NCBI RefSeq assembly: GCF_022482365.1
Contig: NZ_JAKVPE010000001.1
Location: 2,160,176 to 2,224,175, forward strand
DNA length: 64,000 nucleotides
Direction: 5' to 3'
DNA from: Limosilactobacillus sp.
GTDB lineage: Bacteria; Bacillota; Bacilli; Lactobacillales; Lactobacillaceae
The position numbers were made by a program, and so were the translations under genes. The notes under the pieces are model-generated. The model was not told the DNA's origin. It saw nothing but the letters and a program-made list of their open reading frames with translations, and did not search any database. Below, in pieces: positions 11,340 to 29,380 of this stretch (position 1 is its first letter; every line of letters starts with the position of its first letter).

Positions 11340-11374
11340 TTTTTGGTAAGACTTATATATGAGGTTTATGAGAA

Positions 11375-12283
11375 ATGAATGATGATGCTAAATTGCAAAA
11401 AAATAAAACACTTATTTTAACACAAACTAATCCCGAAGTCGATGTTATGTTCAAAAGCTGGCTTGAATATAATTTACATGCTGATGTTATATTTAAAAAT
11501 GTTTCTAAACCATTACGTGCTTTACGAAGAATTGTAGCTATGAAGATGCCAGCGCGTTTTCTTTCTTGTTGGCTCAATAATTGGAAAACAGAATTGAATA
11601 ATTACAATACGATTATTATTCATGCAAGTGAATTGACAAATCATCTTCCTGAATATATTCATCGAATTAATCCCCAAATTAGAATTATATATTGGTATTG
11701 GAACCCGGTTAATAATCATACTTTACCAAGACTGGTTACGGATAGTAATGTTGAGTTTTGGACCTTTGATAAAGGGGACAAAAAAAAATATCATATGAAA
11801 TTTAATATTCAATATTATACTGGGACTACCAATATTCAAAAAGAAAATGTAAAATATGATGTATATTTTATTGGACATGATAAGGGAAGAAAAAAGAAAA
11901 TTAATGACATACTAAAAAAAATTAAAAATGCTGGTTTGAAATATAAGGTTGATATATTATCAGATAATTCTAAGAGGCATATTGCATATAATATAGTAAA
12001 AAAAAGGATTATGGCTGCCAAAGCTATTTTAGAAGTAAATCAAAAGGGACAAACAGGTTATACATTACGGGCCTTGGAATCACTTTTCTTAGAGAAAAAA
12101 TTGATAACAACTAATAAGAGTATTGTTAATGAGAACTTTTATTCTTCCAAGAATATTTTTGTTGTTGATTCTGATGATTGGGGAAAATTACCGTCTATTA
12201 TTACGTCTCCATACGATAAAACCGTAAATCATTTTAAGAATAAGTACGATATTAATGCATGGTTTAGTAATTTCTTTGATTGA
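11375..12283 (+). CDS. Unassigned polysaccharide-cluster protein, possibly a GT-B-like transferase
   Basis: Of 302 residues; no family was recognised with certainty. It opens with a Rossmann-like strand (KTLILTQTNPEVDVMF), has a middle segment NIQYYTGTTNI, a second-domain-like strand VYFIGHDKGRKKK and a stretch ILEVNQKGQTGYTLRALES that sits where the donor-site E-motif of GT-B enzymes would be, followed by KKLITTN. This suggests a divergent GT-B glycosyltransferase of the capsule type, but it is inference. It lies between a GT2 and the polymerase gene, with GAGG before the ATG, and is strongly AT-rich. No signal peptide or membrane helix. Confidence 0.7.
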   Translation: MNDDAKLQKNKTLILTQTNPEVDVMFKSWLEYNLHADVIFKNVSKPLRALRRIVAMKMPARFLSCWLNNWKTELNNYNTIIIHASELTNHLPEYIHRINPQIRIIYWYWNPVNNHTLPRLVTDSNVEFWTFDKGDKKKYHMKFNIQYYTGTTNIQKENVKYDVYFIGHDKGRKKKINDILKKIKNAGLKYKVDILSDNSKRHIAYNIVKKRIMAAKAILEVNQKGQTGYTLRALESLFLEKKLITTNKSIVNENFYSSKNIFVVDSDDWGKLPSIITSPYDKTVNHFKNKYDINAWFSNFFD

Positions 12284-12312
12284 AAAGGCGGCATTTTTAA
12301 AGGGTTTTCTAT

Positions 12313-13461: not shown

Positions 13462-13476
13462 TAAGGAGCTGCAATT

Positions 13477-14553
13477 ATGAAAATAAATATGATTTTGCCA
13501 GGAATAGGACACTCCGGAGGCGTGCAAATGGCAACTGATTATTTAAATTATTTTTCAAAGCATGGTAATGATGTTATATGTTATGTTCCTTTTACAGGGG
13601 CATATTATGGATGGAAAAGAATATTATTTCCTAAATCAATATATAGAATTTTAAGATCAAAAGATTTACGAGGAAGGTGGATCTCTCATAATATTACAGT
13701 AAAATTTGTACCTTTTATTGATAATATATTTGTTAGAAATGCAGATATTACAATAGCAACTAGCTGGCTGACAAGTTATTGGGTTTATAAATTAAGGCCT
13801 CAAAAGGGAGCTAAAGTTTATTTTATTCAAGATTTCGAAACATGGGGAAAAGAAAGGGAAAATTCTAAAGTAAAAGCTAGTTATCAGTTACCATATGATC
13901 TACGCGTTTCAGTAAGTACTGAACTTCATGATAGGCTAATGAAAGAAACAGATGCATCATCATCTGTTATATGCAATGGTATTCCTGAAAGCTATATCAT
14001 TAAAACAAGAGAATATGGTAGTAATAACAATAATATTGTTATAGGAATACCTTTTAGAGAAAAACGAGCTGTTAAGCAAGATATAAAGAATACATCATTT
14101 GGTATTAATAGTTTACTAACCTTTGTAAAAAAACATCCAAATATTAAATTAAAAACATTTGGTTTTAAAAAGCCTAAGGACTTTCCTAAACAAATTAAAT
14201 TTTTGGAAAATCCTAGTAGAGAAGAGCTAAATGAATGGTATGATTCTGTTAATCTTTTTTATGTTCCAAGTATATATGAGGGATGGGGATTACCTGCTAT
14301 GGAGGCCATGGCACGTGGTTGTGTTGTCTTAGGCTCGGATACAGGTTGCCTCAAAGAATTAGGACGGCACTTGAAGAATTGCTATAAAATCCAAAATATG
14401 ACTGATCAGGAGGAATTATTCAAAGGATTAGAAATATTATGTCGATCTCAGAATTTGAGAAAAAACATTTCAAAAAATGCAATTTCTACTGTTAAATATT
14501 ATTCTTTTGAAGAAGAGGCTAATAAATTTCTTGAGCTTCTTAATAAGCTATAA
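13477..14553 (+). CDS. Glycosyltransferase family 4 (rhamnosyltransferase-like, tentative)
   Basis: Of 358 residues. It begins KINMILPGIGHSGGVQ, has VYFIQDFETWGK in the N-terminal domain and the donor-site motif PSIYEGWGLPAMEAMARG. The IQDFE-W segment recalls transferases often annotated as rhamnosyl- or mannosyltransferases in Gram-positive eps clusters, and rml genes follow, so dTDP-L-rhamnose is a possible donor; this is only inference. AAGGAG precedes the ATG, 15 bases after the polymerase gene. Confidence 0.85.
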   Translation: MKINMILPGIGHSGGVQMATDYLNYFSKHGNDVICYVPFTGAYYGWKRILFPKSIYRILRSKDLRGRWISHNITVKFVPFIDNIFVRNADITIATSWLTSYWVYKLRPQKGAKVYFIQDFETWGKERENSKVKASYQLPYDLRVSVSTELHDRLMKETDASSSVICNGIPESYIIKTREYGSNNNNIVIGIPFREKRAVKQDIKNTSFGINSLLTFVKKHPNIKLKTFGFKKPKDFPKQIKFLENPSREELNEWYDSVNLFYVPSIYEGWGLPAMEAMARGCVVLGSDTGCLKELGRHLKNCYKIQNMTDQEELFKGLEILCRSQNLRKNISKNAISTVKYYSFEEEANKFLELLNKL

Positions 14554-14609
14554 AAACATTATTTTGTTTGTCATAGTTATAGTTTACTTGTATTTTAAAG
14601 GAGTAGTTA

Positions 14610-16100
14610 ATGAATAATAATAATAGTAGTAAAAAAAAACATTCTTTAGGTGTTAATGCGGCTCTTAATGGGCTCCAGAGTATTCTAAATTTAATTTTTC
14701 CCCTTATAACTTTTCCTTATGTTTCTAGAATTCTTTCGGTTGAAGGAATGGGGATTTATAATTTTTCATCTACGTATGTTGGTTATTTTCTATTGATTGC
14801 TGGCCTAGGTATTAATACATATGCTATTAGAGAGGGGGCTAAATTTAGAGATAATTATAGAAAAATGAGTAATTTTTCTAGCGAAGTTTTTTCTCTTAAT
14901 ATGACTTCTACTCTGGTAGCATATATTTTATTGATTTTAAGCTTGTTAGTTTTTAAAGTTTTGAATAATTATTCATTGTGCATTTTGATTTTTAGTATTC
15001 AAATACTTTTTACTACGCTTGGCACAAATTGGCTATATGTAATATATGAGGATTATGCATATATTACAACTAGGAATATTGTATTTAAGATTATTTCGAT
15101 TATATTATTATTTGTATTTGTAAAAAAGACGACTGATTATCTTATTTACGCTTGGATAACTGTTTTGGCTTCAGTAGGTTCCAATTTGTTAAATTATATT
15201 CATGCAAAATCTTTTGTAAAATTACGGTTTTCATGGAAAACAAATTGGAGGATTCACGTAAAACCTACATTAATTATTTTCGCGTCAGCTATAGCAGTTA
15301 ATATATATGTTTCTTCTGATAACACGATTCTAGGATTAATTAAAGGGGATCGAGAAGTCGGTATCTATGGTGTTTCTGTAAAAATTTATACAATTGTTGC
15401 CAGCTTACTAACTGCAATTTTAACTGTAACAATTCCTAGACTTTCAGTTTTATATGGGAAAAAGCTTTTTAATGAGTACAAAGTTATTCTAAATAAGTTA
15501 ATAAATTTATTGATTGTTTTAACTTTTCCTGCAATGACAGGGCTTATGATGCTTAGTAAAAATATTGTAGTAATAATTGCAGGGGAAAAATATATACAAG
15601 CTTCAAATTCCTTGGCAATTATTGCTTGGGCTATTCTATTTTCACTATTTAGTTGGGTCATTTCAGATTGCGTATTATTGCCTGCAAAAAGGGAAAAATA
15701 TCTTTTAAAGAGTACAATTATAACTGCAATATTTAATGTTATGATTAATCTAGTTTTTATACCTCTTTGGTCATATGATGGCGCTTCATTGAGTACTGTC
15801 TTAGCTGAGGTAATGTCAGTAACTATGAATGCTTATTATGGGAAAGATATATTAAAAAAGACACTGACAAAGAAAACTTTTGTTAAAAATGTTTTAGACG
15901 CTTTAATAGGTTGCGTTGTCGTATTGCTATTTTGCTATATGGTTAATTTAAACGTTAAATCATTTGTAGTAGGAATATTAATTTCGGTTCCGTTAGCCAT
16001 AATAGGTTATTTTATTACTCTGGTGCTTTGCAACAATTTAACGGTTAAAGAGGCTGTTGAGTATATGAGGAATACCTTTCAAGAAAAGAGGCAATTTTAA
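14610..16100 (+). CDS. wzx: Wzx-type oligosaccharide flippase (MOP superfamily)
   Basis: Of 496 residues with about 12-14 membrane helices. The N-terminal [22 protein letters not shown] region is typical of the polysaccharide transport (RfbX/PST) branch of the MOP/MATE superfamily, as are the later [11 protein letters not shown] and the [14 protein letters not shown] segment. It moves the undecaprenyl-linked repeat unit across the membrane for the polymerase. AAAGGAG precedes the ATG. The stop overlaps the rmlA start in TAATG. It is the last gene of the AT-rich block. Confidence 0.92.
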
Positions 16101-16969
16101 TGAAGGGAATAATTTTAGCAGGTGGGTCTGGTACCCGTCTATATCCAATTACACGTAGTATTTCGAAGCAACTGATCCCGGTTTACGATAAGCCAATGAT
16201 CTATTATCCATTGTCGACGTTAATGTTAGCCGGTATTCGGGATATTCTGGTAATCTCAACACCAGAATATGTGCCTCTGTTTAAGGAACTATTGGGTAAC
16301 GGCTCTGACCTGGGGATGAACTTCTCTTACAAGGTTCAGGAGCACCCGAATGGTCTGGCAGAAGCTTTTATCCTGGGGGAGGACTTTATCGGAGATGACT
16401 CGGTAGCCCTGATCCTGGGTGACAACATCTATTATGGTGCGGGCCTGTCCCAACTGGTTCAAGACGCTGCCAAGAAGACTGACGGAGCGACAGTCTTTGG
16501 TTACCATGTCAACGATCCGGAACGGTTTGGGGTCGTTGATTTCGATGATCAAATGCACGCTCTGTCAATTGAAGAGAAGCCGGCGCACCCAAAGAGCAAC
16601 TACGCGGTCACCGGTCTCTACTTCTACGACAACAATGTGGTTGATATTGCCAAGCACATCAAGCCATCCGACCGTGGTGAGCTGGAGATCACCGATGTGA
16701 ACAAGGAATATCTCCGGCAGGGCAAGCTGGATGTTAAGCTGATGGGCCGGGGTTATGCCTGGTTGGATACCGGGACCCACGACTCCATGCTAGAAGCGGC
16801 TAACTTCATCGCTACGATCGAACGACGTCAAAATTTGAAGGTCGCAGCTCTGGAGGAGATTGCCTACCGGATGGGTTACATTGATAAGGACAAGCTGGTC
16901 GAATTGGCCCAGCCGCTCAAGAAGAACGACTACGGTCAATACTTATTGCGGCTAGCTAAGCAAGATTAG
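16100..16969 (+). CDS. rmlA: Glucose-1-phosphate thymidylyltransferase RmlA
   Basis: Of 289 residues, the usual length for RmlA. The pyrophosphorylase motif [11 protein letters not shown], the substrate segment [20 protein letters not shown] and [12 protein letters not shown] are clear. It makes dTDP-glucose from dTTP and glucose-1-phosphate, the first step of dTDP-L-rhamnose synthesis. Codon use and GC return abruptly to the level of host core genes at this point, although the gene is coupled by a one-base overlap to the AT-rich flippase gene. Confidence 0.97.
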
Positions 16970-16979
16970 GAGGAAAAGA

Positions 16980-17561
16980 ATGGGACAATTAAAGGTACAA
17001 ACGACTAAGTTACAGGATGTTAAGATCATTACTCCAAAGGTCTTCGGTGATAACCGGGGCTTCTTTGAGGAAACCTACTCTGACCGGGACTTTAAGGAAG
17101 CCGGGATCGACTTCAACTTTGTCCAAGACAACCAATCATTGTCTAGCCGGGCTGGCGTGCTGCGGGGCCTGCACTTCCAACGTGGTAAGGCCGCTCAGAC
17201 GAAGCTGATCCGGGTCGTTACCGGGGCCGTACTGGATGTCATCGTGGATGTCCGGAAGGGTTCCCCAACGTACAAGCAATGGGAAGGCTACATCCTCTCC
17301 GCAAGTAACCACCGTCAGCTCTTGGTGCCACGTGGCTTTGCTCATGGTTTTCTGACCTTGACCGATAATGTTAACTTCCTCTATAAGGTGGACAACTACT
17401 ACGACGCTGAAGCTGATGGTGGTTTTTCCTTCAAGACCCCTGAATTGAACATTGACTGGCCAATCGAATTCGATAAGACCATTACTTCCGAGAAGGATGC
17501 CAATCAGCCAACTTTTACGGAATTTGAGAAGGACAACCCATTTGCTTACGGTGAAATCTAA
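16980..17561 (+). CDS. rmlC: dTDP-4-dehydrorhamnose 3,5-epimerase RmlC
   Basis: Of 193 residues in the RmlC cupin fold. The catalytic His lies in LRGLHFQ, followed by KLIRVVTGAVLDVIVDVRKGSPTY in shape and the PRGFAHGF motif; both are conserved in the family. It epimerises carbons 3 and 5 of dTDP-4-keto-6-deoxyglucose. It begins ten bases after rmlA behind AGGAGG. The order A-C-B-D is common in lactic acid bacteria. Confidence 0.97.
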   Translation: MGQLKVQTTKLQDVKIITPKVFGDNRGFFEETYSDRDFKEAGIDFNFVQDNQSLSSRAGVLRGLHFQRGKAAQTKLIRVVTGAVLDVIVDVRKGSPTYKQWEGYILSASNHRQLLVPRGFAHGFLTLTDNVNFLYKVDNYYDAEADGGFSFKTPELNIDWPIEFDKTITSEKDANQPTFTEFEKDNPFAYGEI

Positions 17562-18620
<1,059 letters not shown>

Positions 18621-18634
18621 TTAAAATGATTTAA

Positions 18635-18664
18635 CCAGGCAGCTAAATGTTGCCTGGCTTTTTT
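18635..18664 (+). terminator. Intrinsic terminator between rmlB and rmlD
   Basis: CCAGGCA (18635-18641) pairs with TGCCTGG (18651-18657) and is followed by CTTTTTT. The rmlD ribosome binding site GGAGGG begins two bases after the T-run, so only read-through or a promoter inside this stretch could express rmlD with the cluster. Confidence 0.85.
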
Positions 18665-18677
18665 GGAGGGAACGAGA

Positions 18678-19514
18678 ATGACAAAAATTTTAATCACCGG
18701 TGCCAACGGTCAGCTGGGTAGTGAGTTACGCAACTTGCTTGATGAACGTGGGGTAGCTTATGATGCCTTTGATTCCAAGGGCTTGGACATCACCGATAAG
18801 CAGGCGGTTGATGCTAAGTTCGATGCCTTGAGGCCTGAAGTGGTTTACCACTGTGCGGCTTATACTGCAGTTGACAATGCCGAAGATGAAGGAAAACAGG
18901 CCAACTGGAAGGTCAACGAGGACGGAACCCGTAATGTTGCTGAAGCAGCTAAGCGGGTCGGAACCAAGATGGTCTACATCAGCACGGATTACGTCTTCGA
19001 TGGAACAAATCCTGACGAGTACCAGGTCGATGATCCAACCAACCCAAAGAACGAGTATGGCAAGGCCAAGCTTGCTGGTGAGCAGGCTGTTAAGGAAACA
19101 CTGGATGATTACTACATTATCCGGACGTCCTGGGTCTTCGGTAAGTACGGCAAGAACTTTGTTTACACAATGCTACGTCTGGCTAAGGATCACGATAAGC
19201 TGACGGTAGTTGACGACCAGTTTGGCCGCCCAACGTGGACGCGGACCTTAGCCGAATTTATGATCTATCTGGTGGATAATGATCAGCCGTTTGGCACTTA
19301 CCAACTCTCCAACGAAGGAAGTTGTTCCTGGTACGAGTTTGCCAGTGAAATTCTGAAGGACAAGGATGTCGAGGTGGCACCGGTAACATCTGAGGCTTAC
19401 CCACAGAAGGCTTACCGTCCACGGCACTCAATCATGAATCTGGATAAGGCAGAAAATACTGGATTTAAAATTTTAAGATGGCAAGAGGCATTGCAAAAAT
19501 TTTTAAAAGAGTAG
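18678..19514 (+). CDS. rmlD: dTDP-4-dehydrorhamnose reductase RmlD
   Basis: Of 278 residues from ATG 18678, preceded by GGAGGG; an in-frame TTG at 18663 lies in the terminator T-run. The NAD(P)-binding ITGANGQLGSE, YISTDYVFDG, catalytic YGKAK (YxxxK) and RTSWVFG motifs are those of RmlD. It makes dTDP-L-rhamnose, the final donor. It is the last gene of the exopolysaccharide cluster and is followed by mobile-element debris. Confidence 0.97.
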   Translation: MTKILITGANGQLGSELRNLLDERGVAYDAFDSKGLDITDKQAVDAKFDALRPEVVYHCAAYTAVDNAEDEGKQANWKVNEDGTRNVAEAAKRVGTKMVYISTDYVFDGTNPDEYQVDDPTNPKNEYGKAKLAGEQAVKETLDDYYIIRTSWVFGKYGKNFVYTMLRLAKDHDKLTVVDDQFGRPTWTRTLAEFMIYLVDNDQPFGTYQLSNEGSCSWYEFASEILKDKDVEVAPVTSEAYPQKAYRPRHSIMNLDKAENTGFKILRWQEALQKFLKE

Positions 19515-20540: not shown

Positions 20541-21809
20541 ATAATTCACGAATCATGAGATTAGAAGTCTTCAACGAAATAAGAATCCTAATCCGAAAAT
20601 GGAAGAAGTAGCGATAGCCATATGCAGTTCGCTTGATGACTTTAATTTTATTGTTGGTACCTTCGATCGGACCGTTGGTTAATCGGGTGTAAAAGCTGGC
20701 AATAATCTCCTGACGGTGCTTGGCGAGGGTTCGCTTAACTCGTCTCATAACGTTTGGTAGATTATTCTGCTTAATTAACTGATCTAGCAAGGCCTGACTG
20801 CGGTCGTGGCTATTAAGTCTTGATAGTATTCGTAGGCAGCCCTTAGATCTGGAGAGAAATCGAGTAGCCGTTCGACAACTTCTTGATTGGATAACCAGTG
20901 ATATTGGAAGTTACGTCGGGAATAACAGTGTAGGTAATCTAGTTGGCTTTCCTTGGTCATTAATATCTTCCAGTAATGCTTCAGAGCTCGGTATTCATGT
21001 GTGTTGGGGCCATATGCTTTCATGACTTTGATCCGGGCACTTTGAAGTGCCCGGTAAGCTTGGGCAACGACGTGAAAATGATCAGCTACAATCATAGACT
21101 GAGGGAATAAGTCATGGATTAAGTTGCGATAAGGTTCAAATAGATCGACAACGACAATCTTAACCGACCAGCGAGCCCTTTTAGAGTAGTGAGAAAGAAA
21201 GTAATCACGCATAAAGTGCGAATTACGGGACTGGATGATATCAATAGTGCGATGGTTTTGTGGATTCATTAAGATCATACTCATCTTACCTTGGGCGAAC
21301 TTACCAGATTTAAAATCATCAAAAGCGATGGTTGCCGGTAACCAGTGAGGATTAGTCTTAAAGGTATCTTCGAGGCCCTCGAGCTGACGCTCAACGGTGT
21401 TAGTAGAAACATTGTGATGACTAGCAATGGTCCGCATTGATTCATTCTCACTGAGTTCCTGTACAATATGGTATTTAACGACATTCGCAATTCGACAGGC
21501 AAAGTTAACTCCTTGGGCCTCGGCAACTTTGGTAACTCGCTTGGGGCATTGGGGTGATGGTGGACAGAGATACTGTTGCTTCTTGATTTTTAAGACAGCT
21601 GGTTTCCCGGCCAGTGAAAGGATTTTAATCGTTACGGGCCGCTTACGGAAACCGTTGCGCCGCATCAGCTAGCCGCAAAGCGGACAGTGCATGGGATAAG
21701 ACTGAATTAAATGAATGACCTTTAGTTCTTTACTCTCAGTTAAAAACGGTTTGTCAGGTTTTAAGTAAGGGTCCTTGATTTCGGTCCAAAAGTTGATATC
21801 ATTAGTCAT
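20503..21809 (-). pseudogene. ISL3-family transposase, nonsense codon and frameshift
   Basis: Reading left from ATG 21809, the frame starts MTNDINFWTEIKDPYLK and reaches the zinc-finger half HCPLCG, then a TAG at codon 47 (21671-21669) before LMRRNGFRKR. The main part carries the second finger CPPSPQCPKR, the HTH and the DDE region (AFDDFKSGKF, VVDLFEPYRNL, VADHFHVV). Near 20800-20804 one base is missing in the ACGACCGC run, so the last 95 residues, with the catalytic Glu in NGPIEGTNNKIK, are in another frame. Two independent lesions make autonomous transposition very unlikely. Confidence 0.9.
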
Positions 21810-21953
21810 GAGGAATATATCCTTTCTAAGACAACTGAGTGGTTATGGGGATAACTTAAGACAGTTGTTTTTTTTTTAAATCAATGGTACAGCAAGTAAC
21901 AAAAAACGGTAAAGATAAGAAATTATCTTATACTTACCGAATATCATAGAACC

Positions 21954-22487
21954 TTTTATTGCTGCGGAAAAGTGCGGAAAAATCATCCCCGTTTTTGTTC
22001 CAGATAAGTAGGACTATCTTTTTATGCCCTGCCCAATGTGCCCTTTTAAAGGGTGCAAAATGTGAAATTACTTTGGATATATCATCTTCGCAAATTTAAC
22101 GATCAACTATGCGGTAAAATGCTTTTCGTTTCGTCTGAATGGCAACAATACCCCACCCCCTTAGCTATTCAAAATTTCTCACTTGCCAAAATAATAGTTA
22201 AAGCAGGGTAGGGGATGCTTAACCCTCAAAAATTCAAAAACGGGCATTAATGCGGGCTATCATATAGCGTTAAAGCCTGTATTATCAATAATTAGCATTT
22301 AATAGCCCCCCTACCTAAAAGTTTTAAATTACCGCTTGCGTGTAAGATGATGGCAATGTGTGCGCTCTTTTTGTTTGAGCCATAGGGGGCGGGGGTCAAA
22401 ATCATGACCGGGTCTTAATTAGGTTTTTAATTATATTAACATCATGTATCTCAATAGCTTTTGCATTAGGCACATCGCGCCGAACAG
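21954..22487. other. Gene-free stretch at the left edge of the island
   Basis: 534 bases in which no convincing gene was found on either strand. It contains ACGATCAACTAT at 22099-22110, repeated at 29369-29380. It also has several poly-C tracts (CCCCACCCCC near 22150, CCCCCC near 22303) and a near-palindrome TGCCCTTTTAAAGGGTGC near 22037. Decayed phage-related sequence is possible. Confidence 0.4.
22099..22110. repeat. Candidate left attachment core
   Basis: ACGATCAACTAT, identical and in the same orientation as 29369-29380 beyond the integrase gene. Short direct repeats at both ends are expected after site-specific integration. Twelve bases is short and chance cannot be excluded. Confidence 0.35.
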
Positions 22488-22739
22488 TTAAGCATTCGCA
22501 TCATCTCCGTTCTTTATTAATAATCTGCCATTACAATCAATGTAGTTATTCTTGCGCAAGAAACGCCAAACATCAGTAAGATTATCTGCGCCAACTCTGT
22601 AATAAAACGCAATCGTGTATCTCAAATCTATTATCTTATCTATTTGCCATGTTGTCCTCCTAACTGTGACAGCTTTCATGTGTGTGTGGTGTTCTGTCTT
22701 TTTCCTTTCTATTTTGTCCAAAAAGACACTTAAAGGCAC
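22488..22739 (-). CDS. Small hypothetical protein of the island
   Basis: Up to 83 residues from a GTG at 22739, with another possible start at the ATG of MKAVTVRRTTW, 20 codons in. Neither has a good ribosome binding site. The C-terminal part (YYRVGADNLTDVWRFLRKNNYID) is rich in Arg and Trp and looks like a small winged-helix-sized domain, but no family was recognised. It is the last gene of the leftward unit, downstream of the helicase and iterons. Whether it is expressed is uncertain. Confidence 0.45.
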   Translation of the reverse strand: MPLSVFLDKIERKKTEHHTHMKAVTVRRTTWQIDKIIDLRYTIAFYYRVGADNLTDVWRFLRKNNYIDCNGRLLIKNGDDANA

Positions 22740-22789
22740 TTTTTTTGGAAGACTTTTTCTTACTCTCCCAAGGGCTTAACCCTCTAAAA

Positions 22790-22990
22790 AGACAAAAGGA
22801 CATTTTATTCTCTACTACTTTTTTTCAAAATAAAAACCTTCTTTTTCTTTTTTAATTTAACTTATATAGTGTAAATTGTCCTTTTGTCCATTTTGGCCGT
22901 TCAGCCTTGATATAACAGCTTTTACGACCTTATGAAAAACTGTCTTTTGCTGTCCATTTGGACATTTTAGCCCCAAAATGGACATTTTAT
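22790..22990. other. Candidate replication origin: GGACATTTT/TGTCC iterons beside the helicase gene
   Basis: GGACATTTT occurs at 22798, 22960 and 22980, the last overlapping the helicase stop. The opposite-strand form GTCC(A/T)TTT occurs at 22878, 22886 and 22952, and TGTCC-ATTT-GGACA (22951-22963) is an inverted pair. Between them lies a very AT-rich run of about 60 bases (22811-22870). Iterons plus an AT-rich tract just downstream of a rep/helicase gene is the usual place for the origin of phage satellites. Function is inferred from position and repetition only. Confidence 0.55.
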
Positions 22991-24789
22991 TCGATACTAT
23001 TATCTTCGGCGTACATCGCTAACAGCTTTATAAGCACTTCTTGATTGCGCCAGCTTGTATATTTAACTCCGTCATCTTTATCGGTATCTCTGTCTTTTTC
23101 AAAATCGAACTTAATTTTTAATTCTGAACTCCAGCTTTTTTTACTGTAAGCATTCAAATCATTATCGTTGCAATATTGCTTATAGTCATTCCACGCTTCT
23201 TTGTCTGCGAGAAAATAAATTTCGTTTTTAGTTCGTCTAATCAGATTAGGGTTATTATACGGAATAGAGTTAAGCCAACTACCTAAAACGTCATTATCTT
23301 CTAGCCATTCATCTGTTGCACTTCTTATCTCTTTAGAGATTGTGAAGCCGTGCTTGAATGTATTTCGGAAAGCCTGAATACATTCATAGACAAACTGTGG
23401 TCGCTCTGCCTTGATAGTCTCAATGTTGTGTCGCTTCCAGAAAGCACGGTCAACATCACGGGTATCTTTATTAAAGAAGGGGAGTACGATTGCCCGGTCT
23501 TTTAATGCACCATCTACTTGTTTCCCACTAACCGGCGGCAAGTCATTAGCTGAAAATAGTAGTTTCGCATAAGCATTAAGCATGAATTGCTTACCGCCCT
23601 TGAATTCAGCCGGTAACCCATCACCACCGGTCAATTTTTTTATTCGGGCCATTGATTGAAGTAAGTCCGTTCCAATATCCGCATCATAAGCTAATTCCTT
23701 ACTATATAAGGTAGATACGACAAACCTATTATTAGGGTCTGTCAGTTGTACTAGGTCAATTGGTGTGGTATTATCGTTGTTTTCCCCGTCTAAGTACCAG
23801 TTGCCAATCAAATTAATTAGAGTCGACTTACCATTACCTTTTTTGCCAGTAAATATCATGAAACGATTAGGAGCTTTTTTATAAGAGTTAAAGAACATAT
23901 AACCTATATATTCTTTAAGACAAGTCACTGATTCATTATTTGCAGCCAACGTTGCTAGCTTATCGCTGCCGTACTCGCCAAGTTTTAGGCCATCGGTCAA
24001 CATTTCTTCTAACATGGCATTAGTTTCAGTCGCTGGCTTGCTATTACTAGTGTCAAGGTCATAGCTGTGGTAATTAACCAGGTAATCACTTCTACAATGT
24101 CCCCTTAGAGCATTTTCTTTAAAGTCATATGTGCCATTCTTAAAAGCGACTAAACCAGTTGTCATTTTTTTATCCGGAGTTTTTACATCGTATTTATAGA
24201 CAAAACGACTAGAATTGAAGATGTTCCAGCCTTTTGTAAAACCATCATTTAAAGCTCTAGTATCGGTTATCCCCCATTTTGCTAATTGTCCTTGTAATTG
24301 ATAATTGAACCAATTTTTCATTTCTCTATGTTCAAATATTCGCCATGTACCCTTTTCCTCTTGATAAGTTTGGCCTTGTGATAGTTGTGGATAGACTTCT
24401 GTTGGTCTGTTGATTGCTAACTTAGTAGCAAAGGTGGACCACTCATAAACTAAATAAGGGCGACCGGTACGTTTAGCTAAAAGTAATTTTATCCAACAGG
24501 GGATAAATAATTCTATCATTTTTCGCCAATCATCACCCTCATCACTCCATGCAAAAAGAGGAGCACGACCGGAATTTTCATTCTCGTTATAAACATATTT
24601 TTCTTTATCAAAAGTACTTAGAAGGGCCGGTATAGATAATGGTTCAAGTTTGAAATTGCCGTTATATTGGGGGTCATGCCAAAGAGCGTCTGCTTCATCA
24701 TATAAGCTTGACCACTCGCTTTCAGCAATACCATAGGCTTTACAGATTAATTTTTGGTCGTCGCTAAGTTTTACCTTGTTTTCTTCCAT
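22987..24789 (-). CDS. D5-type/SF3 replicative helicase (phage/plasmid primase P4 family)
   Basis: Of 600 residues. A D5_N-like region (about 190-290, with VAFKNGTYDF) is followed by an SF3 helicase core: Walker A FTGKKGNGKST (314-323), a Walker B-like KELAYDADI (364-372), KLTGGDGLPAEFKGGK and motif C LLFSANDLPP. The C-terminal region contains a winged-helix-like part. Such proteins unwind replication origins in P4-like phages and satellites. ATG 24789 follows AGAGGTGA. It lies 13 bases after the primase gene; iterons follow its stop codon. Confidence 0.9.
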   Translation of the reverse strand: MEENKVKLSDDQKLICKAYGIAESEWSSLYDEADALWHDPQYNGNFKLEPLSIPALLSTFDKEKYVYNENENSGRAPLFAWSDEGDDWRKMIELFIPCWIKLLLAKRTGRPYLVYEWSTFATKLAINRPTEVYPQLSQGQTYQEEKGTWRIFEHREMKNWFNYQLQGQLAKWGITDTRALNDGFTKGWNIFNSSRFVYKYDVKTPDKKMTTGLVAFKNGTYDFKENALRGHCRSDYLVNYHSYDLDTSNSKPATETNAMLEEMLTDGLKLGEYGSDKLATLAANNESVTCLKEYIGYMFFNSYKKAPNRFMIFTGKKGNGKSTLINLIGNWYLDGENNDNTTPIDLVQLTDPNNRFVVSTLYSKELAYDADIGTDLLQSMARIKKLTGGDGLPAEFKGGKQFMLNAYAKLLFSANDLPPVSGKQVDGALKDRAIVLPFFNKDTRDVDRAFWKRHNIETIKAERPQFVYECIQAFRNTFKHGFTISKEIRSATDEWLEDNDVLGSWLNSIPYNNPNLIRRTKNEIYFLADKEAWNDYKQYCNDNDLNAYSKKSWSSELKIKFDFEKDRDTDKDDGVKYTSWRNQEVLIKLLAMYAEDNSIE

Positions 24790-24802
24790 CTATAAATCAC
24801 CT

Positions 24803-25870
24803 CTATCCAATCTCGCTTTTTAAGCCCTTAATGTTGAATTCAACTTTGTATCTGTTGCGCTGTGCTGATTTATAATTAATAGCTCTTTGAATAGTTCGCT
24901 GGCCATAAGTCCCGGCACCGTCTTTAGAATCCCACTTAGGACGGTATAAGTGAGTTTGCTTAAATATTTCGTCAATAAGCTTGCTGTTATATTCGCCGGT
25001 CGTTCGCTTAACCCAATAAGCTAAGATATTGCAACAAGTTTGGTCCTGGCTTGAAGGGTCATAATCAATCATTATTCCGTTCCAGTTAGGAACCTGTTTG
25101 CCACTAACGTTAGTACTAACAGTAGGCAAGTCGGCATTGAGCCACCAACTGAATTTAGTAGCATCAGTACTTTTCATAATGTTGTCGATTACTGCTAACC
25201 CCTGTTCACTCAACACACCTTGTGAAAGCTCTGTACCGCTAAAGGCATCATTAGTTGAAATAGTAGGGGAGTAATCACCAAATGCTAATTTATGCAATTG
25301 TTCCCACTGTTGTTGGTTAATAGTGGTTATTTTTAACGGCCGGTCAATATCTAGGCGGTTACCGGTCAGTGCTGCCATTCTTCCTTTTACATATAATTCA
25401 CAGCCATGTTTTTTTCGTGTAAATTGCTTTACAGAATTGTCTAGTTTGAAAATGAAGTGAAGCCCTTCTTGCGACTGGCTAACTTCACAATAGGTGTAGT
25501 CCAGTAGTTCCACAATATTGCTGATAATGTTGTGTTCACCTAAGCTATAGTTAGCTATCACAGTTGGTATGTGGTCTATGTCTAAGAAGGCCCAACCGTC
25601 ACCAAACATGAATCCGGGACCGCCGTAATGCATTTCTTTTATTCTTTGGGGGTTATTCTTAGCAAATACATAAGTGTTGTTTGCCTGCTGGTATGTCCCC
25701 CATGTGTTAGGGTTAGTAGATGAAGCCATACCTTTACACATAAAACTGTTAAGATTGTGTGGTATCTTTTTACGTTTGTGAATATTAGAAATGCTCATTT
25801 CTTCATAGAACCAAGCACACCAGCGCTTTTCTTTTTTCATCTCATCGGGGACAGTGAAGTCGTTAGTCAT
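24803..25870 (-). CDS. AEP-superfamily primase/polymerase-like protein
   Basis: Of 355 residues from ATG 25870, which has AAGGTGA five bases before it and overlaps the previous gene by eight bases. The archaeo-eukaryotic primase signatures are visible: the metal-binding D-x-D in WAFLDIDH (Asp 97, 99), S-x-S-x-x-G-x-H in SQSQEGLHF (131-139) and the later R-x4-TG in GRMAALTGNRL. The C-terminal part (KRTTGEYNSKLIDEIFKQT) is like the primase C-terminal domain that joins helicases. It should make primers for island replication with the helicase encoded downstream. Confidence 0.85.
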   Translation of the reverse strand: MTNDFTVPDEMKKEKRWCAWFYEEMSISNIHKRKKIPHNLNSFMCKGMASSTNPNTWGTYQQANNTYVFAKNNPQRIKEMHYGGPGFMFGDGWAFLDIDHIPTVIANYSLGEHNIISNIVELLDYTYCEVSQSQEGLHFIFKLDNSVKQFTRKKHGCELYVKGRMAALTGNRLDIDRPLKITTINQQQWEQLHKLAFGDYSPTISTNDAFSGTELSQGVLSEQGLAVIDNIMKSTDATKFSWWLNADLPTVSTNVSGKQVPNWNGIMIDYDPSSQDQTCCNILAYWVKRTTGEYNSKLIDEIFKQTHLYRPKWDSKDGAGTYGQRTIQRAINYKSAQRNRYKVEFNIKGLKSEIG

Positions 25871-26099
25871 TAGCTTCACCTTCCAACCTGTATTGAGCTT
25901 CCAGGGCATCAAGTACATTGCGTAATTCTTTGATGAATTGCACGTCATCAATGGCGCTTACTGATTTACCCGGCACTTTTGACAAGTCACCCTTGCTAAT
26001 AATCAAGGCTGAATTTCCTTGATGGTCACTGGAATAAATAACCTTGTATGGCTTCTTGAGGTTCACCAGGGAAGTTTCTACATTTATCTTTTTTTTCAT
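25863..26099 (-). CDS. Small hypothetical protein of the island
   Basis: Of 78 residues from the ATG at 26099, preceded by AAGGAG; an ATG seven codons upstream contains that ribosome binding site and is less likely. The sequence KKKINVETSLVNLKKPYKVIYSSDHQ then a Val/Glu-rich helix is soluble and unassigned. Its last eight bases overlap the primase start, so the two are probably translationally coupled and may act together in replication. Confidence 0.7.
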   Translation of the reverse strand: MKKKINVETSLVNLKKPYKVIYSSDHQGNSALIISKGDLSKVPGKSVSAIDDVQFIKELRNVLDALEAQYRLEGEAND

Positions 26100-26214
26100 G
26101 TCTTTTAAATCTCCTTCCATCGTGTTAAAATGAAAGGGTAAAGATATTTATGTTTCACGTCCTTAACGCCTGTCAGCACAAGGACTTTTTTTGTTTCACA
26201 AATATTCTTTACCC

Positions 26215-26532
26215 TTAAAACCATTTGTCATTGACAACTTCTTGGGTGGAATCTTGTAAGTTGTTAATGGCTTTTTTATTTTGCCCAAAAACATTATCTT
26301 CTAACTTGGTTAAGGCTTGGTATTGGATAGCCATTTTCTTAATCTCACGGGCTGTATTGAGAATATCATCTGCTTTTTCCACCGGATCAGTAATAACTAC
26401 ACCATCATCGAAAGTGATAGTTCCTTCATCTGGAATACCTTCACAAGCAGCAGCTACATACTTGCCAGCGTTGATAATCTTATCTTGAACGGTGATAATT
26501 TCATCTTCTAATTGTTGTTCTGTTTTAGTCAT
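26215..26532 (-). CDS. Hypothetical acidic coiled-coil protein of the island
   Basis: Of 105 residues with AAAGGATGA before the ATG. Two helical segments rich in Glu, Lys and Gln (1-30 and 50-105) flank a short beta-like insert GTITFDDGVVITD. No family recognised. It belongs to the leftward operon between the membrane peptide and the primase. Proteins of this size and charge in satellites are sometimes replication accessory factors or inhibitors, but nothing here shows the role. Confidence 0.7.
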   Translation of the reverse strand: MTKTEQQLEDEIITVQDKIINAGKYVAAACEGIPDEGTITFDDGVVITDPVEKADDILNTAREIKKMAIQYQALTKLEDNVFGQNKKAINNLQDSTQEVVNDKWF

Positions 26533-26548
26533 CGTAAATCATCCTTTC

Positions 26549-26677
26549 TTATAAATAGTTTGTAATAGTTGCTATAACAGCAAGCAGCGGAATAAGTGTC
26601 ATGGCATACGCCCAAACACGTTCATCTGGGGCTGTGTACCAGAAATTAAGAATACTCTGGTCAATCTTTGCTAACAT
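26549..26677 (-). CDS. 42-residue single-pass membrane protein
   Basis: A short frame starts at ATG 26677 with an excellent GGGAGGTGA ribosome binding site and stops at TAA 26549. The product MLAKIDQSILNFWYTAPDE is followed by a hydrophobic helix (about residues 21-41). The context, with the start of the next gene 17 bases after the stop, supports a real gene. Function unknown; small holin-like or regulatory membrane peptides are possible. Confidence 0.65.
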   Translation of the reverse strand: MLAKIDQSILNFWYTAPDERVWAYAMTLIPLLAVIATITNYL

Positions 26678-26680
26678 TAA

Positions 26681-26709
26681 ATCACCTCCCAACATATCCC
26701 CCGTGTCGG
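26681..26709. repeat. 29-base direct repeat, copy 1
   Basis: Matches 28033-28061 at 28 of 29 positions; the common core CAACATATCCCCCGTGTCGG is identical. This copy lies just upstream of the 42-residue gene and includes its ribosome binding site on the minus strand. The second copy is upstream of the integrase. Confidence 0.8.
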
Positions 26710-26714
26710 AGAGA

Positions 26715-26984
26715 TTAATTTGTTGCCATGAATTTGTCTAAGTCGTTACGATTGAAGCGATATGAACCAGCAATGTGCTTATAAGGAACTTTTTCCTCAT
26801 CCATCCATGTGGACAGGGTGTTATAGGAAATTCCCAAGTATTTGGCCGCCGTGCCCTTATTCATATACATGGGCCACTTATCGTTCTTGCTTTTAGAATC
26901 ATCAACGATTTTTTGTGCCGCTGTGCTAATAGCGACTTTTAGAGCATCTTCTAATTCTGGGGAGAGGTTAATTTCCGCTTGCAT
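26715..26984 (-). CDS. Helix-turn-helix excisionase/AlpA-like DNA-binding protein
   Basis: Of 89 residues with GGCGGTGA before the ATG. The C-terminal half is a MerR-type winged helix of the excisionase group: NKGTAAKYLGISYNTLSTWM, then KVPYKHIAGSYRFNRNDLDKF. Such proteins act as recombination directionality factors for tyrosine integrases or as activators (AlpA). It is the first gene of the leftward operon, immediately behind the divergent promoter, the usual place for the xis/regulator of a satellite. Confidence 0.85.
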   Translation of the reverse strand: MQAEINLSPELEDALKVAISTAAQKIVDDSKSKNDKWPMYMNKGTAAKYLGISYNTLSTWMDEEKVPYKHIAGSYRFNRNDLDKFMATN

Positions 26985-27008
26985 ATTTTCACCGCCTTTT
27001 AATTTTTT

Positions 27009-27061
27009 GAACTAATTCCGAACTAGCTCGCAAAAAATAAAAATCCGAACTAATTCCGAAC
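27009..27061. promoter_or_regulatory. Candidate operator pair in the divergent control region
   Basis: GAACTAATTCCGAAC occurs at 27009-27023 and again at 27047-27061, starts 38 bases apart. The second copy touches the rightward -35 box. A second repeated element, CGAATTTTTGAA, occurs at 27102-27113 and 27121-27132 in the repressor leader. Both are likely binding sites of the XRE repressor or the AlpA-like protein. Confidence 0.6.
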
Positions 27062-27063
27062 CA

Positions 27064-27092
27064 TTGACTATATATTAAATCTAATTTATACT
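27064..27092 (+). promoter_or_regulatory. Promoter for the repressor/integrase unit
   Basis: TTGACT (27064-27069), 17-base spacer, TATACT (27087-27092). It overlaps on the opposite strand the promoter of the leftward operon. Confidence 0.8.
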
Positions 27093-27100
27093 TGTGTCAA
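27072..27100 (-). promoter_or_regulatory. Promoter for the leftward replication unit
   Basis: On the minus strand TTGACA (27100-27095), 17-base spacer, TAATAT (27077-27072). It shares over 20 base pairs with the rightward promoter, so RNA polymerase cannot occupy both. Confidence 0.8.
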
Positions 27101-27145
27101 TCGAATTTTTGAACTTTTTTCGAATTTTTGAAGGAAGGTGAAACT

Positions 27146-27778
27146 ATCTCAAAAAATGCTGAAATGGGGAAACGAATCAGGTCTATTCGTAAAAGACTTG
27201 GAAAAAACCAAGAGGAGTTTGGACAATTGTTTGATCCGCCGGCCCCCAAAAGTAGCGTTTCCTATTGGGAAAACGGTGGTGGTCCTAATAAACAACGCTT
27301 AAAGAAAATAGCTGAACTTGGCGGTGTTTCTGTCGAATATCTTATAAATGGTAGCCATATGAGTGCGGCCGATACTAAACAATTACTTGATAAAGCGGTA
27401 CACGGTTCTAAATTGAATGAAGAAGAGCAGAGAAAAATAACCGAATCACAAATTGAATTTACTTCAGTTATGTCAGCAATAACATCAAAGTGGGAAAGTA
27501 CGGCCCGTAGCCAATTTGAAAAACAGCAAGACATTATTAAAAAAAATCCGTTATCAGTGATTGAGCTTTTAGCCTACGACGATTTCCTTATTCTTTTTAA
27601 TTTGATTCGTTTACATGGCACCGATAGTCAGCAGGAAGATTATAGAGCGTTCTTAAACTTGATACGACAAATTGCTGTTGGCACTATTCAATATGATAAG
27701 GCCGATATTCTTCCTAATGTTGATAAGCTACTGTCTAGTTTTCCTATTAAGAAAGATGATAGCGATGAATCAAATTAG
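27146..27778 (+). CDS. XRE-family repressor of the island, possible AUC start
   Basis: About 210 residues. An N-terminal XRE helix-turn-helix (GKRIRSIRKRLGKNQEEF then SSVSYWENGGGPNKQRL) is followed by a helical C-terminal part (about 90-205) that may dimerise or sense an inducer; there is no LexA-like protease motif. The start is unclear. AAGGAAGGTG (27131-27140) points to ATC 27146, which gives an N-terminus like that of related repressors (SKNAEMGKRI). TTG 27128 lies before that site, and ATG 27164 is 23 bases after it. It should hold the leftward operon off, like Stl-type repressors. Confidence 0.8.
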   Translation: MSKNAEMGKRIRSIRKRLGKNQEEFGQLFDPPAPKSSVSYWENGGGPNKQRLKKIAELGGVSVEYLINGSHMSAADTKQLLDKAVHGSKLNEEEQRKITESQIEFTSVMSAITSKWESTARSQFEKQQDIIKKNPLSVIELLAYDDFLILFNLIRLHGTDSQQEDYRAFLNLIRQIAVGTIQYDKADILPNVDKLLSSFPIKKDDSDESN

Positions 27779-28005
27779 GGTACCATTTTTACTTCAATTT
27801 CATTATGGTACCGCTAGAATCATTATGGTACCGTCTCAGCCTTACGGCCCCAACGGTTTAGGCCACTCGGTACCACGGTACCATGCAATTCCACTTACTC
27901 AGTCAGTTTGAGATGTAGAGAAAGTGTAGTCTACATTCTACATATTGTTCTACACGGTTGAAGCTTACTCCCATAAAGGGTTAGACCACTATGTAGAGAT
28001 GTAGA
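27779..28005. repeat. Dense short-palindrome region: five GGTACC and six TGTAGA/TCTACA
   Basis: GGTACC occurs at 27779, 27807, 27827, 27869 and 27877; CATTATGGTACCG is repeated exactly at 27801 and 27821. Then TGTAGA or its complement occurs at 27914, 27937, 27949, 27992 and 28000, plus TGTAG-T-CTACA at 27925-27935. No gene lies here. The two families form separate blocks between repressor and integrase. They could be protein-binding iterons, integrase arm sites or a second origin. Confidence 0.7.
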
Positions 28006-28032
28006 GTTCCATATCTGTTATTATGTGTTTTT

Positions 28033-28061
28033 ATCACCTCTCAACATATCCCCCGTGTCGG
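28033..28061. repeat. 29-base direct repeat, copy 2
   Basis: Matches 26681-26709 with one difference. It lies 27 bases upstream of the integrase start codon and contains CCCCCGTGTCGG. Suggests a shared regulator for the integrase and the leftward small genes, or a duplicated recombination site. Confidence 0.8.
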
Positions 28062-28088
28062 TCAAACGATCGGAAAGGTGATAATAAA

Positions 28089-29192
28089 ATGGCATATATT
28101 GGAACTACTGTGAAAAAGGCAAAAAATGGCTACTATGGTTATGTAAATTATCGTGACTCTAACGGTAACCGTAAGCAGAAGAAGGCCAAGGGGCATTTTA
28201 AGTTAAAGCGAGATGCCAAAGAAGCTGCCGGAAAGCTTAAATTAGAGCTTGAAGCATCAAATACTAGCTTGGCAGATATTTCTTTCGCTGATTATTATCG
28301 TCGGTGGGTTGAGTTATATAAGGAAAACAAAATCAAGAGCCATAGTGCAAAGTATCAATACAAGCTCATTGGTAACTATATTGAGGACTATTTTGAGCAG
28401 AAGAAGCTCAAAGATATACATAGAAGCGACTACCAAGCCTTCATTAATTGGTATGGTAAAGATCACTCCTATGAAAGTGTGAGGAAACTAAAAGGGGCTT
28501 GCCATACTTGTGTTAGCTATGCCGTTGATGATGATGTCGTGCGAAAGAACTTTACCGACAACGTTGAATTAGTTTATGACTCTGAACGGACTCGTAAGGT
28601 TCAGTATCTAAGTAATGATGAGCTTATTAAATTGAAAAAGCGGGTGGTTAGTCAGCTAGATCATAACTACACCAGTCGCTACATGATCCTCACGGCAATT
28701 TATACCGGAATGAGGAAAGCAGAAATTCAAGCGCTGACCTGGAACGACATTGACTTCTTGCACTCGACTATTTCTATAAATAAGTCGTGGGACGAAAAAG
28801 AAAAAACCTTCAAATCAACTAAGACAGAATCAAGCAACCGGGTAATCAAGGTTAACCGGGAACTACTTAAACGTTTAGAAGATTTGAAGGTTAATAGTTC
28901 TACCATGGTATTTAGAAATATGTTTGGGACAATTCCCACATCAAACGCATTGAATAAGTGCCTACATGAAATAATGAAGAACGCTAAGATTGATAAAGAA
29001 GGATTTCACTTCCATTCATTGCGTCACGTCCATGTAGCTTATTTGATTGGTCAGGGTGTCGATATATACGCAATCAGTAAGCGGTTAGGCCATGCTAACG
29101 TGAATATCACGTTAAAGGTGTATGCTTATCTGATTGATGAATACAAGGCAAAGAACGATAACTTAATAGTGGAAAAGCTTCAAAAAATATAA
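28089..29192 (+). CDS. int: Tyrosine-family site-specific integrase
   Basis: Of 367 residues from ATG 28089 behind AAAGGTGA; an upstream in-frame start lacks a ribosome binding site and crosses the 29-base repeat. An AP2-like arm-binding domain (about 1-55: NGYYGYVNYRDSNGNRK) and a SAM-like core-binding domain (60-165) precede the catalytic domain. The residues Arg 209 (TGMRKAE), His 309/Arg 312 (HSLRH), His 335 (LGHAN) and nucleophile Tyr 345 are intact. It should integrate and excise the island. GAGTCAAAA is repeated at 29197 and 29208 just after the stop, possible arm sites. Confidence 0.95.
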   Translation: MAYIGTTVKKAKNGYYGYVNYRDSNGNRKQKKAKGHFKLKRDAKEAAGKLKLELEASNTSLADISFADYYRRWVELYKENKIKSHSAKYQYKLIGNYIEDYFEQKKLKDIHRSDYQAFINWYGKDHSYESVRKLKGACHTCVSYAVDDDVVRKNFTDNVELVYDSERTRKVQYLSNDELIKLKKRVVSQLDHNYTSRYMILTAIYTGMRKAEIQALTWNDIDFLHSTISINKSWDEKEKTFKSTKTESSNRVIKVNRELLKRLEDLKVNSSTMVFRNMFGTIPTSNALNKCLHEIMKNAKIDKEGFHFHSLRHVHVAYLIGQGVDIYAISKRLGHANVNITLKVYAYLIDEYKAKNDNLIVEKLQKI

Positions 29193-29307
29193 ATCTGAGT
29201 CAAAATTGAGTCAAAACAAGCCGCAGCCCTTAGTAGGCAAGGCGTTGCAATCCCCGTGCGGGTGATTTTAATATTACTGAAAAACATTGATATGGCAATG
29301 TTTTGCG

Positions 29308-29341
29308 AGGCTGATGTGCTTTTTGTACACCAGCCTTTTTT
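29308..29341 (+). terminator. Terminator downstream of the integrase
   Basis: AGGCTGATGTGC (29308-29319) pairs with GTACACCAGCCT (29325-29336) with one mismatch and one G-T pair around a TTTTT loop; TTTTT follows. It ends the repressor-integrase transcript before it reaches the chromosomal flank. Confidence 0.8.
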
Positions 29342-29368
29342 GATGCTGAATAGTTTTCCTTGCCAAGT

Positions 29369-29380
29369 ACGATCAACTAT
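29369..29380. repeat. Candidate right attachment core
   Basis: ACGATCAACTAT, identical to 22099-22110. It lies 177 bases after the integrase stop, a normal distance for an att site. Confidence 0.35.

What the first reader, a model, noticed from the sequence alone, without database searches (positions are those of the whole stretch)
22099..29380. Compact phage-satellite-like island without packaging genes
Integrase and repressor read right, and an AlpA-like protein, small proteins, an AEP primase and a D5/SF3 helicase read left from one control region. The order matches Gram-positive PICIs, but there is no terminase, capsid-size or interference gene. It is either truncated or a very small satellite that relies on other means of transfer. 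The AEP primase next to a D5 helicase is a full replication module.
Basis: partly seen in the sequence, partly recalled or inferred. Interest (0 to 1): 0.7.

Follow-up and report, generated by a model that had tools for sequence, protein, structure and literature searches.

The report
Cos-bearing mini phage satellite, now split
This is a very small phage-dependent mobile island that carries no packaging genes but does carry what looks like a copy of a helper phage's DNA-cutting site, and it is one of a family of such islands in related bacteria that also show an unexpected match between two of their messenger RNAs.

Summary
Gene order confirmed: repressor and integrase read right; excisionase/AlpA-like protein, small proteins, primase and SF3 helicase read left; no packaging gene. 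The borders are wrong: the 12-bp repeat at 22099/29369 arises in 19 of 500 shuffles and is absent from empty sites. The right end is tRNA-Glu 3' sequence at 29251-29269; its partner tRNA-Glu lies 44.7 kb left, outside the window. About 37 kb of IS-rich DNA, partly near-identical to another species, separates the island's first ~160 bp from the other ~7.3 kb. Five related genomes show an empty site.

The missing packaging genes have an explanation: 22306-22396 matches the block between HNH and TerS genes of lactobacillar phages, where the BK5-T record has its ends. This is a candidate cos site; eight other annotated islands of the genus carry it.

Unexpected: in 16 of 16 islands, and 3 of 3 held out, the integrase leader is complementary to the early-operon leader beside alpA/hp48, and in 15 of 16 the integrase ribosome site is predicted to be mostly hidden in a hairpin. 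This may be an RNA switch tying integrase to the early operon.

The parts
21761..21875 (-). right end of a broken IS copy (IS relic from about 20457; ISL3 type by eye, not searched) that abuts the island
   Evidence: 94% copy elsewhere in the genome ends here
21876..21953 (.). short repeat with inverted ends (MITE-like by eye), second copy at about 251 kb in the genome
   Evidence: 88 of 92 identical over 21862-21953
21954..22305 (.). left-end zone of the island: inner arm-type repeats TGCGGAAAA x2 from 21963
   Evidence: similar layout in other tRNA-Glu islands
22306..22396 (.). candidate cos site (C-run, cosN-like GCAATGTGTGCGCTCTT at 22353-22369, G-run)
   Evidence: same block in HNH-TerS gaps of prophages and at the end|start junction of the phage BK5-T record
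22488..22739 (-). hp83, unknown small protein; similar to one beside the helicase in L051
   Evidence: 48% over 50 aa; no credible family
22600..22985 (.). probable replication origin: AT-rich, TGTCC/AAAGACA repeats just past the helicase
   Evidence: 7-mer count reached in 12 of 300 shuffles in the window; 0 of 300 in L049, L052 and L050 at the same place
22987..24789 (-). SF3/D5 helicase, 600 aa
24803..25951 (-). AEP-type primase (NrS-1 polymerase-like)
25863..26120 (-). hp85, small protein with relatives in other islands (33-35% over 51 aa)
26215..26532 (-). hp105, small protein, 49% to the second island of this genome
26549..26695 (-). hp48, small hydrophobic protein (probable start 26677), found right after alpA in several islands
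   Evidence: 73% in L063, 55% in L013
26681..26709 (-). hp48 leader with its ribosome site; complementary to the integrase leader
   Evidence: 28 of 29 nt identical on + strand to 28033-28061
26715..26984 (-). AlpA-like / excisionase-family HTH protein
   Evidence: HTH_17 1.1e-9; TIGR01764 over cut-off
27128..27778 (+). cI-like repressor
   Evidence: HTH_3
27779..28022 (.). control region with GGTACCA x5 and ATGTAGA x5 repeats
   Evidence: 0 of 300 shuffles
28028..28088 (+). integrase leader: predicted hairpin pairs a 5' arm with the ribosome site AGGTGA
   Evidence: P(paired) 0.99; fold -16.3 kcal/mol, z -2.07
28089..29192 (+). tyrosine integrase (start at 28089 preferred; ORF opens at 28023)
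   Evidence: PF00589, phrog_1
29197..29214 (.). arm-type repeats GAGTCAAAATTGAGTCAA; the same motif with one base different lies beside the tRNA-Glu at the far left end
29251..29269 (+). right attachment core = 3' end of tRNA-Glu(CTC)

Best explanation
It is a cos-type phage satellite integrated at the 3' end of tRNA-Glu(CTC). When a helper phage is active, the early operon (alpA/xis, small proteins, primase, helicase) is switched on. Integrase and the excisionase-like protein cut the island out. Primase and helicase copy it from the repeat-rich origin beside the helicase gene into concatemers. The helper's HNH nuclease and terminase cut and package these at the cos site that the island carries, so it needs no terminase of its own. 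In this genome the island is split: ~37 kb of IS-rich foreign and chromosomal-type DNA lies between its first ~160 bp (still at the tRNA) and the remaining ~7.3 kb, so it is probably stranded as a 7.5-kb unit. Shown by sequence: modules, site, empty sites, the cos-like block and its phage counterparts, the distance between the two cores. Inferred: induction, excision, replication, packaging, and that the split is an insertion into one island.
For: Gene families. Same int/alpA/primase/helicase module beside a tRNA-Glu core in G022 (tRNA on another contig), G032 (integrase cut by the contig end) and G041. Core in 32 of 50 genus genomes at up to 1 mismatch; the printed contexts are tRNA-Glu 3' ends except for copies at the inner ends of islands. 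Empty sites: genes left of the tRNA and the window's right-flank gene both lie beside it in G034, G010, G002, G024, G006 (G034 and G010 over longer stretches). Cos: block in the HNH-TerS gap of L128, L123, L125, L126, of Sha1, and at the end|start junction of the BK5-T record. Genus-wide 22 matches in 16 of 50 genomes, 7 for the reversed pattern: 5 left ends of tRNA-Glu islands, 5 HNH-TerS gaps, 8 other blocks with both flanking runs, 4 chance hits. Seven cos-bearing relatives BLASTed to terminase references: 0 of 7 hit, while the prophage L174 hit TerL, TerS and HNH. HMM scan of 10 ORFs each from G042 and G036 (not their full gene sets): no packaging family. The related island L013 encodes a TerS and has no block in the 11.1 kb held. 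Split: matching arm repeats at window 29197 and L100 3800; insert partly 89-97% identical to G032 DNA.
Against: No resident helper is evident: the cos motif occurs once in this genome, in the island itself, and PF10145 (tape measure) has no match. A second TerS-family hit at 943.7 kb (36 bits), besides the one in the second island, was not looked into. The inner arm repeats at 21963 (TGCGGAAAA) differ from the outer ones at both ends (GAGTCAA), so the left part may come from a second island. The window's iteron signal alone is weak (12 of 300 shuffles). G041 has neither the block nor a recognised TerS, so the terminase-or-cos rule is not complete. A blastn search of the block alone in the phage collection did not recover phages of lactobacilli. 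Record ends are not always cos ends: the CHPC974 record starts just upstream of the block. No expression or particle data.
Confidence: 0.8

Rival explanations
1. Prophage remnant: the island is what is left of a temperate phage that lost its late genes.
For: Int, cI and primase-helicase genes are also phage genes; the HNH-TerS block is a phage site.
Against: Eight other annotated islands in other species carry the block, integrase and AlpA-type genes and no terminase hit where BLASTed (G022 BLASTed in part); separate primase and helicase genes are seen in the closest relatives, whereas most other hits in the family are fused proteins of about 770 aa; in the window the block is not beside HNH or TerS.
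Confidence: 0.08
2. Two tandem islands: the GAGTCAA end at the tRNA belongs to one, the stretch from 21954 to a second; the part between was replaced.
For: Inner arms differ from outer arms; a tandem arrangement exists in L013.
Against: The arms next to the tRNA match those after the integrase at 29197; the layout left of the cos block fits one island interrupted near the terminator.
Confidence: 0.25
3. The whole 44.7 kb between the two cores is one mobile unit, of phage-genome size, that carries the polysaccharide cluster.
For: Both cores and both outer arm repeats match; 44.7 kb is close to the 39.1, 44.6 and 45.2 kb of three phage contigs with the same block; rlmKL inside is a second copy, 98% to G032.
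Against: Several IS copies and core-type genes inside suggest later insertion (named by eye); no strain seen with and without the whole unit.
Confidence: 0.1

Closest known systems
cos-type PICIs: SaPIbov4/5 and EcCICFT073
   Same: EcCICFT073 has no TerS and carries cos sites used by helper phages; SaPIbov4/5 have a phage cos site in place of most of operon I (passages of PMC6092414 and PMC5052747).
   Different: Different host group, tRNA-Glu site and cos type (BK5-T/Sha1-like); the window island is about 7.5 kb against about 14 kb for SaPIs.
PICMI, minimal satellites of Vibrio (PMC10803314)
   Same: Int, AlpA-type regulator, DUF5906 protein, very small, no capsid-remodelling genes (passages).
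   Different: PICMIs sit at fis, no cos or pac site was identified, packaging looked headful-like; here tRNA-Glu, a cos-like block and a cI-like repressor.
cf-PICI (name recalled; cited paper seen in a reference list only)
   Same: A second island in the same genome (L063) shares cI, alpA, hp48 and hp105 relatives and carries HNH, TerS, TerL, portal, protease/capsid and adaptor.
   Different: The window island has none of the capsid or packaging genes.
Lactococcal bIL310 and StCI-301 of Streptococcus thermophilus
   Same: Small int/repressor/replication elements of lactic bacteria; StCI-301 has two putative cos sites (PMC13376191 passages).
   Different: The bIL310 record has a gene annotated terminase; the StCI-301 cos sequences differ from the block here.

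Membership tests
Gram-positive PICI | int and repressor divergent from an early replication operon | tested here: met
Gram-positive PICI | specific attachment site with empty sites elsewhere | tested here: met
   tRNA-Glu core, five empty-site genomes; left core now 44.7 kb away
Gram-positive PICI | own replication origin with iterons beside rep | tested here: inconclusive
   weak in the window, strong in three relatives
Gram-positive PICI | induction and transfer by a helper phage | not testable with these tools
   needs an experiment
cos-type satellite | no terminase small subunit | tested here: met
cos-type satellite | carries the cos sequence of phages of its host group | tested here: met
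   sequence and position match phage HNH-TerS gaps and the BK5-T end junction; cleavage itself not tested
cos-type satellite | packaging by the helper at that site | not testable with these tools
   needs a transduction assay
PICMI | integration at fis | tested here: not met
   site is tRNA-Glu
PICMI | DUF3987 + DUF5906 primase | tested here: not met
   DUF5906 only; separate primase with NrS-1 HBD
cf-PICI | own capsid and packaging genes | tested here: not met
   none in the window island

The most novel reading that the evidence does not exclude
Satellites of lactic bacteria share an RNA switch. The integrase mRNA leader hides its own ribosome site in a hairpin, and the leader that follows alpA/xis in the divergent early mRNA is complementary to the hiding arm. 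The early mRNA would therefore open the integrase mRNA in trans, and be masked itself, so that integrase is made only when the excisionase operon is transcribed. The pairing sequences change together from island group to island group.
Probability: 0.45. Interest if true: 0.82.

Novelty: new variant of a known kind. Interest (0 to 1): 0.62.

Why it matters
The work replaces 'no packaging genes, transfer unknown' with a concrete prediction: a named 91-bp block should let a named type of phage (HNH plus P27-type TerS, BK5-T/Sha1-like cos) carry the island. It also indicates that such islands are common in this genus (nine annotated ones, this one included, in 50 genomes). If the RNA pairing is real, it would be a way for a mobile island to tie its integrase to induction that I found in no paper listing, and it can be tested with two short leaders and a reporter.

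Tried and rejected
12-bp repeat as attachment site: rejected (19 of 500 shuffles; absent from 7 loci of 5 empty-site genomes). Near DNA matches in the phage and plasmid collections: none. blastn of the cos block alone in phages: two 26-base hits in staphylococcal phages at E 0.3, not used. L124 and L127 carry the motif among unrelated phage genes without the flanking runs: chance. Four of 22 genus matches lie in ordinary genes: chance. Cos-block loci that could not be used as islands: G010 (no island genes in the stretch held), G024 (other genes), G007 C215 and G032 C106 (not annotated in full). Rfam: nothing over the gathering score in the window, two sub-threshold hits in the island. hp48 as a toxin was considered; no family supports it. 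Leader pairing in named elements: bIL311 has a strong match (48), but before its first early gene and with a second, inverted match (40) near an IS; bIL310 has one at an early-gene junction with a score (35) no higher than the control phage bIL286 (35); bIL312 has none that fits; control Sha1 30. Phage T25 was fetched but not scanned. Other held loci with related helicases (L053, L057-L061, L011) were not tested for the pairing. A DNA operator bound by the AlpA-like protein was considered for the repeats and is not excluded. Structure prediction was not used. IS families, rlmKL and the polysaccharide genes are named by eye, not by a family search.
Full report
WHAT IS THERE. The window is G000:C1:2160176-2224175 of a single-contig 2.34-Mb genome; the tools give no species name. 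Between a broken IS and a 284-aa ORF lie, reading left, hp83, an SF3 helicase, an AEP-type primase, hp85, hp105, hp48 and an AlpA-like/excisionase-family protein, and, reading right, a cI-like repressor and a tyrosine integrase. No credible packaging or capsid family was found; PADLOC gave only HTH-type and weak matches.

WHERE IT ENDS. Shuffled sequence gives such a repeat in 19 of 500 trials, and the 12-mer is absent from 7 of 7 loci from 5 empty-site genomes. The integrase is instead followed by TCCCCGTGCGGGTGATTTT at 29251-29269, once in the window. A 17-base version occurs, with up to one mismatch, in 32 of 50 genus genomes. In the contexts printed it is the 3' end of a tRNA gene, identified as tRNA-Glu(CTC), except for copies at the inner ends of islands. 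In G041 a 24-bp form flanks a 9.4-kb island on both sides, and a 20-bp arm-type repeat recurs at both its ends.

THE ISLAND IS SPLIT. The only other exact copy in this genome is in the intact tRNA-Glu at G000:C1:2144623-2144697, 44.7 kb to the left; a third copy with two mismatches is at 69.7 kb. Next to the tRNA are arm repeats GAGTCAAATTTGAGTCAA, one base different from those after the integrase. In G034 the genes left of the tRNA (88-100% identical to G000) are followed directly by the window's right-flank genes, and a stretch before the first of these is nearly identical. G010, G002, G024 and G006 show the same empty arrangement. So the DNA between the two cores in G000 is extra at this site. 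By eye it holds IS copies, a polysaccharide cluster and a second rlmKL; that copy is 98% identical to G032's, while the other copy, at 557 kb, is 88% identical to it. Part of this DNA is 89-97% identical to G032. I read this as a ~37-kb insertion between the first ~160 bp of the island and the rest. A tandem-island origin is not excluded, because the inner arms at 21963 are of another type.

A COS SITE INSTEAD OF PACKAGING GENES. A ~100-bp block at 22306-22396 recurs about 300-630 bp inside the tRNA-Glu core in G022, G032, G042 and G023. In IMG/VR contigs L123, L125, L126 and L128 it lies between the HNH nuclease and TerS genes; the other two of six contigs, L124 and L127, are chance matches. 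TerS of L128 is 97% identical to that of Lactobacillus phage Sha1, which has the same block in the same gap, and 56% to that of Lactococcus phage BK5-T, whose record has its ends inside the equivalent block. The C3.1 record has its ends at the equivalent place too; the CHPC974 record starts a little upstream. That BK5-T has 12-nt cohesive ends there is recalled; no call read it. Genus-wide there are 22 matches in 16 of 50 genomes, against 7 for the reversed pattern. They fall into 5 island left ends at tRNA-Glu (the window's among them), 5 HNH-TerS gaps, 8 other blocks with both flanking runs and 4 chance hits. Eight islands besides the window's were annotated with integrase and AlpA-type genes: G022 (block and integrase on two contigs), G032, G042, G023, G036, G026, G009, G037. 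Seven of these (not G022, which was done in part) were BLASTed against reference terminases: 0 of 7 hit; the prophage L174 used alongside does. HMM scans of 10 ORFs each from G042 and G036 agree. The related island L013, without the block in the 11.1 kb held, encodes a TerS. G041 lacks the block and has no recognised TerS. Within this genome the motif occurs only in the island and PF10145 has no match, so no resident helper is evident; a TerS-family hit at 943.7 kb was not followed.

A SECOND ISLAND. At ~163-178 kb the same genome has a related island with HNH, TerS, TerL, portal, protease/capsid and adaptor genes and a 14-bp end repeat, and no tail gene among the ORFs scanned, as in cf-PICIs.

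ORIGIN. Past the helicase the window has TGTCC/AAAGACA repeats (12 of 300 shuffles reach the count); at the same place L049, L052 and L050 have other, stronger repeats (0 of 300 each). Each island thus seems to have its own iterons.

AN UNEXPECTED RNA PAIRING. A 29-nt stretch before hp48 recurs, 28 of 29, in the integrase leader. Because the two genes read in opposite directions, the two RNAs are complementary. I compared 16 islands (the early leader was taken after alpA, or before hp48 in five islands where alpA was not located). All 16 pair with -43 to -70 kcal/mol, z -3.5 to -12.5 against shuffles. The early leader is the best of 814-1282 windows around its own integrase in 11 of 16; the other five rank 2 to 5. 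In G022, G032 and G037 a leader from another island group pairs nearly as well (within about 3 kcal/mol), so specificity is weak there. The sequences differ between groups. Of the mismatches, 14 keep a G-U pair, 6 are the reverse transitions and 28 are transversions, most in the looser alignments; the islands are related, so this is only suggestive. The integrase ribosome site is paired with upstream bases with median probability 0.78 against 0.41 for 187 other genes; 15 of 16 are at 0.63 or more and G026 is at 0.17. Overall folding z-scores are weak, -0.4 to -2.8 in the 10 of 16 leaders tested. Three islands not used before (G006, G063, G070, the last two from another family) all have the leader after alpA as the best match of their stretch and above 300 of 300 shuffles, G063 by a single point (27 against 26); their lowest-energy folds also cover the ribosome site. 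G006 had been listed, which stopped before reaching it. Among named elements bIL311 has a strong match before its first early gene, bIL310 is borderline, bIL312 does not fit. The simplest reading is that the early mRNA frees the integrase ribosome site. A DNA operator would explain the repeats but not the hairpins.

LITERATURE. Passages were seen in PMC10803314, PMC6092414, PMC5052747 and PMC13376191. Listings for phage satellites with cos sites or PICIs in Lactobacillus, and for Limosilactobacillus satellites, show no such report (five listed papers, none opened). Listings for satellite integrase antisense or riboregulation show none either (with 12 of 216 listed, 119); none of these was opened. 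The library is open-access papers only.

VERDICT. A cos-type mini-satellite, new to me in host group, site and cos type, now split; a known kind of element whose missing packaging genes are explained, plus one RNA feature that deserves an experiment.

Noticed in passing
window 26681-26709 and 28033-28061; also L063, L051, L050, L013, L049, L052, L014-L016, L151, L153, L169, L171-L173, L054-L056: Complementarity between the early-operon leader beside alpA/hp48 and the integrase leader, in all 16 islands compared and 3 held out; among named lactococcal elements bIL311 yes, bIL310 borderline, bIL312 no.
   Followed up: yes
window 1712-2872 (G000:C1:2161887-2163044) and G000:C1:556844-557980: A gene that looks like rlmKL is present twice; the copy beside the polysaccharide cluster is 98% identical to another species (G032), and the two copies are 88% identical to each other.
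   Followed up: partly
window 3309-19514: Apparent exopolysaccharide cluster, GC 28-30% at about 10-16 kb, inside the 44.7 kb between the two tRNA-Glu cores, with IS-like genes on both sides.
   Followed up: partly
L063 3660-17553 (G000:C1:163659-177552): Second satellite in the same genome with its own HNH, terminase, portal and capsid genes and a 14-bp end repeat.
   Followed up: partly
G000:C1:943745-943972: A second TerS-family (PF05119) hit in the genome, outside both islands; possible phage remnant.
   Followed up: no
L013 1-11137 (IMG/VR): Two related islands in tandem at one tRNA-Glu core.
   Followed up: no
window 27779-28022: Two sets of repeats, GGTACCA x5 and ATGTAGA x5, between repressor and integrase; function unknown.
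   Followed up: no
L153 2640-5054 and L154 2761-8842: Relatives carry what look like restriction-modification genes near the cos block or past the helicase, as possible cargo.
   Followed up: no
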